A stretch of DNA of 64,000 nucleotides from Pseudomonadota bacterium (GTDB lineage Bacteria; Myxococcota_A; UBA9042; GCA-2863065), in contig SXOX01000036.1 of NCBI GenBank assembly GCA_005776585.1, forward strand, positions 1 through 64,000, read 5' to 3'. The notes below the pieces were generated by a model. The model ran no database searches and was not told where the DNA came from. It was given only the letters and a program-made list of their open reading frames with translations. Positions 10,104 to 10,850 of the stretch are shown here, one piece after another. The first letter of the stretch is position 1. Every line of letters begins with the position of its first letter. A program made the translations under genes and the position numbers.

Positions 10104-10850
10104 ATGTCTCTCGGATTGTCGGTTGGCGGAGCAGCAGGCGGATTCATCAGTGGCAAGGTCGGCGGCGCCATGGGTGGCGTGGTCGGGAGCGTCGCAGGTG
10201 CTGCGCTCGGAAACCTGGCCAACTTCGCAATGGGCGCGCTGTTCGGCACTCGCCGCGACCCCGATCTCCAGTTTTGTTACACAGTGGAGATTGACGGCAT
10301 CACGCTCGGCATGTTCTCGGAGGCCGGCGGGATCAAATGGTCCATGGAGACGGAGAACGTCAAGTCGGGCGGCAACAACGACCACGAGTTCTACCTCCTC
10401 GGTCGTGCCAAGTTCGATCCGTTGGTCCTCAAGCGAGGCTTCGTCGCCGCAGAGGGCATGCTCTTCGACATGATGAAGGCCAACTACGACCTCACGTCGA
10501 GCGCAGCGCCGCGCCACAAGGTCGACGTCGTCGTCCTCAAGCGGCAGAACAACACCGGCCTCTCGGGCCTCGTCGGGCTCGGCGAGATCGGGCGCTTCTC
10601 GTTCCCGAACTGCTTCGTGCAGGAGTGGAGTGGCCCGCAGTTCAACGCAAAGACGAGCGACATCACGATCGAGTCGATCACCTTCCGCTATGACTACGTG
10701 GAGTTCCTTCCGGGCGGGCCACTGGCCACGGCGCTCGGTGCGATCGGCGGGGCGATTGGCGGCAAGCTCGGCGGCGCGGTCGGAGGCAAGATCGGCGGGG
10801 CGATCGGCAGCGCGGCAGGCGCGGCCGGTGGCAAGGCGCTCGGAATCTAG
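10104..10850 (+). CDS. Tail tube protein 2 with glycine-zipper segments at both termini
   Basis: Central tube fold FCYTVEIDGITLGMFSEAGGIKWSMETENVKSGG...; N-term GGAAGGFISGKVGGAMGGVVGSVAGAALG and C-term GAIGGAIGGKLGGAVGGKIGGAIGSAAGAAGGKALGI. Confidence 0.88.
   Translation: MSLGLSVGGAAGGFISGKVGGAMGGVVGSVAGAALGNLANFAMGALFGTRRDPDLQFCYTVEIDGITLGMFSEAGGIKWSMETENVKSGGNNDHEFYLLGRAKFDPLVLKRGFVAAEGMLFDMMKANYDLTSSAAPRHKVDVVVLKRQNNTGLSGLVGLGEIGRFSFPNCFVQEWSGPQFNAKTSDITIESITFRYDYVEFLPGGPLATALGAIGGAIGGKLGGAVGGKIGGAIGSAAGAAGGKALGI

What the first reader, a model, noticed from the sequence alone, without database searches (positions are those of the whole stretch)
10104..10850. Tail tube paralogue flanked on both ends by glycine-zipper segments
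The central part reads as a gp19-like tube protein. The N-terminus (GGAAGGFISGKVGGAMGGVVGSVAGAALGNLANFAMGALFG) and C-terminus (GAIGGAIGGKLGGAVGGKIGGAIGSAAGAAGGKALGI) are GxxxG-type hydrophobic repeats resembling membrane or pore-forming glycine zippers. A CIS tube subunit with two such arms could anchor or cap the tube in a membrane, or plug the lumen.
Basis: partly seen in the sequence, partly recalled or inferred. Interest (0 to 1): 0.75.

Follow-up and report, generated by a model that had tools for sequence, protein, structure and literature searches.

The report
Injection-tube initiator with glycine-zipper arms
The gene encodes the ring protein at the base of the inner tube of a bacterial contractile (phage-tail-like) injection machine, and in this group of uncultured Myxococcota it carries unusual greasy glycine-repeat arms at both ends, which probably pack inside the machine's tip and might touch a target membrane when it fires.

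Summary
ORF 10104-10850 (+) encodes a 248-aa gp19-fold protein with two real GxxxG-repeat arms (residues 1-49 and 204-248). The identity needs refining: it is the single-layer tube initiator (Cis5/Alg5/Pvc5 type) of a contractile injection system (CIS), not a second bulk tube protein. The bulk tube (Cis1) is the gene at 6780. Known Cis5 proteins (147-167 aa) have no such arms. The N arm is kept in all five members of the closest clade and recurs in some other lineages. It is absent, or replaced by Pro/Lys-rich extensions, in many orthologues, so it is a lineage trait and not a general CIS requirement. The C arm is enlarged in this genome by a 12/24-bp tandem repeat. AlphaFold2 (monomer, shallow alignment) leaves both arms low-confidence, and hydropathy is borderline, about that of the SlyB zipper. 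Across families, a Cis5 C-tail goes with a long N-terminal extension on the neighbouring ring protein Cis7 (post hoc, hand-set boundaries). This favours arms packing inside the tip. Target-membrane insertion, as shown for the zipper of the T6SS effector Tde1, is possible but untested. Anchoring in the cell's own membrane has no support. A variant of a known part; moderate interest.

The parts
10104..10250 (+). N-terminal glycine-zipper arm (residues 1-49)
   Evidence: GxxxG 11 vs shuffle mean 4.0; same kind of arm in L033-L036; AF2 pLDDT about 34-41 with a low-confidence helix 31-44
10251..10712 (+). gp19-fold tube-initiator core (residues 50-203), Cis5 type
   Evidence: PF06841 E 3.4e-24; profile best against Alg5 7aeb_Y and All3323 7b5h_AM; Foldseek top two hits are the same chains
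10713..10847 (+). C-terminal glycine-zipper arm (residues 204-248)
   Evidence: GxxxG 13 vs 6.3; AF2 low-confidence helix 206-226, then disordered; shorter Gly/Ala tail ending in SI or GI in close relatives
10736..10808 (+). 12/24-bp tandem repeat that encodes most of the C arm
   Evidence: TRF: period 24, 2.8 copies, score 99; period 12, 6.1 copies
6780..7211 (+). Cis1-type bulk inner tube protein (comparison)
   Evidence: PF06841 E 8e-41; best PDB match Alg1 7adz
4710..5294 (+). Cis16/Pvc16-type cap protein
   Evidence: PF14065 Pvc16_N E 1.8e-21
5378..6559 (+). sheath protein 1
   Evidence: PF04984 and PF17482
8285..10075 (+). sheath protein 2, directly upstream of the Cis5 gene (start codon not fixed)
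   Evidence: PF04984 and PF17482
10895..16315 (+). 1806-aa Ala/Ser-rich protein in the gene place of Cis6 (plug) and of a tape-measure protein; conserved C-terminal helix
   Evidence: counterparts of 591-1811 aa with the same C-terminal motif at the same place in 11 loci; sub-threshold DUF5908 matches in two relatives; AF2 helix 237-258 of the modelled piece, pLDDT about 76-90
16365..17126 (+). Cis7-type tube initiator (CIS_tube + LysM) with its own hydrophobic Gly/Ala N-extension
   Evidence: PF19266 E 7.8e-17; PDB 9gtp_P, Alg7, All3321, Afp7; residues 3-21 LMSGLADMVSGALAAGGLL
17139..18254 (+). VgrG-related spike (Cis8)
   Evidence: NF033848 sub-cutoff match E 2.9e-19
18586..19002 (+). gp25-like baseplate protein (Cis9)
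   Evidence: PF04965
18999..22013 (+). Baseplate_J/gp6-like wedge (Cis11)
   Evidence: PF04865
22014..22919 (+). Tail_P2_I-like baseplate protein
   Evidence: PF09684

Best explanation
The protein is the Cis5-type tube initiator of a Myxococcota contractile injection system: six copies form the ring that joins the Cis1 tube to Cis7 and the Cis8 spike (by homology, well supported). Its two glycine-zipper arms most likely work inside the particle. Close-packed Gly/Ala helices from six Cis5 subunits bundle with each other and with the hydrophobic N-terminal extensions of the six Cis7 subunits next to them, forming a hydrophobic collar or gate at the base of the lumen, probably around the giant tape-measure/plug-like protein encoded between the two genes. 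Shown: the arms, their spread, the gene order, and the co-occurrence of Cis5 C-tail and Cis7 N-extension. Inferred: helicity, position in the lumen, contact between the arms, and any gating.
For: Cis5 identity: the profile ranks Alg5 (3.7e-20) and All3323 (7.2e-20) above the tube chains; Foldseek gives the same two first; tube1 by contrast prefers Alg1. Cis5 and Alg5 are tube-initiator layers together with Cis7/Alg7 (PMC8894136, PMC8894135). The gene order cap, sheath, tube, sheath, Cis5, large gene, Cis7, Cis8, gp25, gp6 is repeated in relatives. The N arm is kept in all five members of the clade, support 100/97, despite 46-53% identity. All 7 loci with a Cis5 C-tail have Cis7 N-terminal KD17 of at least 0.7, against 2 of 21 without; by length of the Cis7 extension the 4 tail families rank highest of 12 (1 of 495 permutations). 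The arms carry K and no D/E, and tube lumens are reported as negatively charged (PMC8894136, PMC8894135). Hydropathy is too low for a clear TM helix.
Against: The co-occurrence test was made after seeing the data, with extension boundaries set by hand; on the first 7 families with hydropathy as the measure it gave only P 0.057, and families are not fully independent. Cis5 N-arm hydropathy does not correlate with Cis7 (rho 0.17, P 0.37). AF2 leaves both arms low-confidence. No multimer could be modelled, so lumen or outside is not known.
Confidence: 0.45

Rival explanations
1. The arms are a membrane-active tip: on firing, the initiator ring reaches the target membrane, the zippers unfold from the tip and insert as small Gly/Ala helices that permeabilise it or let cargo through, so that the machine itself carries the pore element.
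For: In the T6SS effector Tde1, N-terminal GxxxG repeats are needed for membrane permeabilisation and translocation, and similar zippers occur in tape-measure proteins of probable prophages (PMC10240207). A tape-measure-related CIS effector with predicted TM helices exists in Streptomyces (PMC11126660). The big protein here has no strong hydrophobic segment, so the zippers could take that role. Weak C-arm match to SlyB; best segment score close to the SlyB zipper (flat-scale sum 5.0 vs 4.4 kcal/mol, lower is more membrane-like).
Against: Scores are weaker than clear TM helices (the kinase TM in the same window gives -1.4). Many orthologues lack the arms. No membrane data.
Confidence: 0.22
2. 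The arms are flexible low-complexity extensions under weak selection, grown by repeat slippage in a high-GC genome; the Cis5 termini tolerate such additions.
For: Extensions at the N-terminus vary widely between families: none, Pro/Lys-rich, Gly/Ala-rich. The C arm is a DNA tandem repeat. AF2 pLDDT 34-43 in the arms.
Against: The N arm is not a detectable tandem repeat, yet it keeps 4-residue periodicity and is retained across relatives of 46-53% identity with almost no acidic residues. The C tail keeps its Gly/Ala/Met composition and a terminal SI/GI in the clade.
Confidence: 0.25
3. The arms anchor the loaded particle in the producer's own membrane.
For: Membrane-anchored CIS exist: in Anabaena Cis12 contacts and Cis13 penetrates the thylakoid membrane (PMC8894136), and the Streptomyces CIS requires a membrane protein, CisA (PMC12237407, title and abstract only).
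Against: In the Anabaena case anchoring is by peripheral baseplate parts, not by the central tube ring, which by homology is enclosed by sheath and baseplate before firing. Hydropathy borderline.
Confidence: 0.05

Closest known systems
Cis5 All3323 (Anabaena tCIS, PDB 7b5h chain AM) and Alg5 (AlgoCIS, PDB 7aeb chain Y)
   Same: gp19 fold, best sequence and fold matches, same gene place before Cis7 and Cis8. The naming of these two chains as Cis5 and Alg5 rests on their rank, six-chain copy number and the papers' description, not on a chain table read here
   Different: 147-167 aa without either arm; the window protein adds about 49 and 45 residues plus a Gly-rich loop insertion (residues about 149-160)
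Pvc5 / Afp5 (6j0n, 6rao)
   Same: tube-initiator ring, same fold
   Different: 149-152 aa, no arms; more distant in sequence (profile E 5e-14 and 1.8e-9)
Glycine-zipper T6SS effector Tde1 (PMC10240207)
   Same: repeated GxxxG in a protein delivered by a contractile machine
   Different: Tde1 is a DNase effector loaded through an adaptor; here the repeats sit on a structural ring protein. No sequence homology was tested
SlyB-type glycine-zipper membrane proteins (PDB 7ojf)
   Same: GxxxG-rich Gly/Ala stretch with weak similarity (E 0.26 for the C arm alone)
   Different: a lipoprotein with a membrane domain; the similarity is compositional and not significant
Tape-measure-related CIS effector Tme (PMC11126660) and plug Cis6/Alg6 (PMC8894135)
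   Same: the gene after Cis5 in the window is the largest in the cluster, just upstream of the baseplate genes as tme is, and ends in a helix weakly like DUF5908
   Different: no detected tape-measure homology or TM helices in the window protein; Alg6 is small

Membership tests
Cis5/Alg5 tube-initiator family | gp19/TIGR02241 tube fold | tested here: met
   PF06841 3.4e-24, TIGR02241 78.7 bits against cutoff 62.4; Foldseek
Cis5/Alg5 tube-initiator family | Closer to initiator chains than to bulk tube chains | tested here: met
   Alg5 and All3323 rank first by profile and by fold; tube1 ranks Alg1 first
Cis5/Alg5 tube-initiator family | Gene place between tube/sheath and Cis7-Cis8 | tested here: met
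Cis5/Alg5 tube-initiator family | Passes NCBIfam NF053770 CIS5 equivalog cutoff | tested here: not met
   51.5 bits against 260; tube1 scores 80.8 on the same model, also far below. This is a property of one narrow equivalog model, which does not cover or separate these paralogues, not a defining property of the protein kind
Cis5/Alg5 tube-initiator family | One hexameric layer in the particle | not testable with these tools
   needs cryo-EM
Glycine-zipper membrane proteins | GxxxG repeats above chance | tested here: met
Glycine-zipper membrane proteins | Passes a Pfam glycine-zipper gathering score | tested here: not met
   best 12.4 bits against 27
Glycine-zipper membrane proteins | Membrane insertion | tested here: inconclusive
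   flat-scale sums 5.0 (N arm) and 6.1 (C arm) against 4.4 for SlyB and -1.4 for a clear TM; no experiment

The most novel reading that the evidence does not exclude
A contractile injection system whose structural tube-tip ring is itself the membrane-active part: twelve Cis5 zipper arms, with help from Cis7, are driven into the target and form or line a pore, a job otherwise proposed for effectors or tape-measure proteins.
Probability: 0.18. Interest if true: 0.75.

Novelty: new variant of a known kind. Interest (0 to 1): 0.45.

Why it matters
How cargo passes the last membrane after a contractile machine fires is poorly understood. A tube initiator with zipper arms, matched by extensions on the adjoining ring, gives a small and testable module at the tip. 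If the arms only pack inside, they show how the initiator gates or holds cargo; if they insert, the needle tip itself is a pore-former. No paper found in the searches made here describes arms on a CIS tube initiator, within an open-licence library.

Tried and rejected
Viral-contig scan failed three times on the server side. Plasmid tblastn gave only core-level hits at 27-32%. The idea that the two arms are copies of each other has no BLASTP support. The idea that arms moved to or from the big protein was tested by scanning for zipper segments: only one big protein (L041, a lineage without arms) has a weak one, so not supported. Profile search of the big protein's C-terminus against PDB gave nothing. 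Fusions of gp19 tubes to OmpA or LysM looked like support for envelope-binding initiators but lie outside recognisable CIS clusters, so they were not used.

Full report
Observation. The ORF at 10104-10850 (+) is real and reads as described. Its start is fixed to within one codon by the upstream stop and has a purine-rich AAAGGTG stretch upstream. Residues 56-200 are a gp19 tube domain. Both arms show strong 4-residue glycine spacing compared with shuffles of their own composition. No other ORF in the window and fetched loci has such arms at both ends. In the window no other ORF shows a hydrophobic zipper segment.

Identity. The cluster is a CIS with its main parts: Pvc16-type cap, sheath 1, tube 1, sheath 2, this gene, an 1806-aa protein, CIS_tube+LysM (Cis7), VgrG-like spike, gp25, gp6, Tail_P2_I. 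A profile of this protein and 18 relatives finds Alg5 and Anabaena All3323 first in the PDB; the AF2 model finds the same two by fold. The true tube at 6780 prefers Alg1. In published structures Cis5/Alg5 and Cis7/Alg7 are the tube initiators between tube and spike (PMC8894136, PMC8894135). So the finding is a Cis5, one ring near the tip, not a generic tube paralogue. The CIS5 equivalog model of NCBIfam is missed by both paralogues and is too narrow to decide.

Spread. Relatives come from uncultured Myxococcota/Deltaproteobacteria genomes, plus one Akkermansiaceae bin; bin titles are not reliable, e.g. one f5-like contig is titled Klebsiella. The five members of the closest clade all have Gly/Ala zipper N arms and a hydrophobic C tail. 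N arms of similar kind are also in families f3, f7, f10 and the Akkermansiaceae bin; f6 and f9 have almost no N extension; f5 has long Pro/Lys/Ala-rich extensions (families are the anonymous labels; the sorting of arms into three states was by eye). On the core tree the three states are clustered (3 changes in all, shuffled mean 16.6). In the most distant class-level relatives, one gp19 protein (L078) has a Gly/Ala N-terminal segment and others do not. The arms are thus a lineage trait, not needed for CIS in general. The window's C arm is longer than its relatives' and is a 12/24-bp tandem repeat, so recent expansion explains its extreme regularity; the N arm is not such a repeat.

Structure and membrane tests. 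AF2 (19-row alignment, monomer) models the core well enough for fold search but leaves 4-55 and 216-248 below pLDDT 50, with low-confidence helices 31-44 and 206-226. On flat hydropathy scales the arms are weaker than a clear TM helix and close to the SlyB zipper. Neither result shows or excludes membrane affinity.

Link to Cis7. The window's Cis7 starts with LMSGLADMVSGALAAGGLL ahead of its domain. In 29 loci with both genes, Cis5 C-tail hydropathy correlates with Cis7 N-terminal hydropathy (rho 0.71), whereas the Cis5 N arm does not (rho 0.17). With families as units and hydropathy as the measure, P is 0.057 on 7 families. By extension length on 12 families, the four C-tail families have the four longest Cis7 extensions (1 of 495). 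The measure was changed and the families extended after the first result, and boundaries were set by hand, so this is a lead, not a proof. It fits arms of adjoining rings meeting inside the tip.

The gene between. The 1806-aa protein occupies the place of the Cis6 plug and of phage tape measures. Counterparts of 591-1811 aa occur in 11 other loci; most of the length is diverged, but the C-terminus keeps a helix motif (LDxLAxEMxxRI...KREKERRG), modelled as a confident helix, with weak DUF5908 hits in two relatives (E 0.2 and 0.46). That DUF5908 is the Cis6 family is from memory. A tape-measure-related effector in the same position is known in Streptomyces (PMC11126660).

Mechanism. Best supported: arms bundle inside the initiator, with Cis7 extensions, as a collar or gate around the cargo or tape-measure-like protein (0.45). 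Rivals: neutral low-complexity extensions (0.25), membrane-active tip by analogy with Tde1 (0.22; PMC10240207), own-membrane anchor (0.05).

Verdict. Observation confirmed, interpretation partly supported, a variant of a known part that the searches made here did not find described, with a testable but unproven function.

Noticed in passing
window 10895-16315 (+), with counterparts in L033, L034, L036-L039, L041, L045, L049-L051: A giant Ala/Ser-rich protein between Cis5 and Cis7 with a conserved C-terminal helix weakly like DUF5908; a candidate fused tape measure and plug.
   Followed up: partly
L074:448-1347 (+) and L077:8757-10001 (-): gp19 tube domain fused to a C-terminal OmpA-family domain (PF06841 + PF00691) in two same-phylum genomes; no other CIS genes similar to the window's were found within about 8-10 kb.
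   Followed up: partly
L084:1-750 (+), L087:9153-9950 (+): A gp19 tube protein with an N-terminal LysM motif and a Pro-rich linker, apart from any recognisable CIS cluster.
   Followed up: partly
orthologues in family f5, e.g. L010, L015, L025, L030, L051: Cis5 with N-terminal extensions of roughly 100 to 200 residues, Pro/Lys/Ala-rich, with a recurring LPAxAPE-like motif; function unknown.
   Followed up: no
window 478-2748 and 24580-25248 (+): A Ser/Thr kinase and an FHA protein flank the CIS cluster, reminiscent of kinase/FHA control of T6SS (the comparison is from memory).
   Followed up: no
L033 2783-3871, L034 1-8000, L036 1-7850: No Cis1-like tube found beside sheath 1 in L033, and no sheath 1/tube 1 genes upstream of sheath 2 in L034 and L036, so the operon seems to be split or rearranged in the closest relatives.
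   Followed up: no
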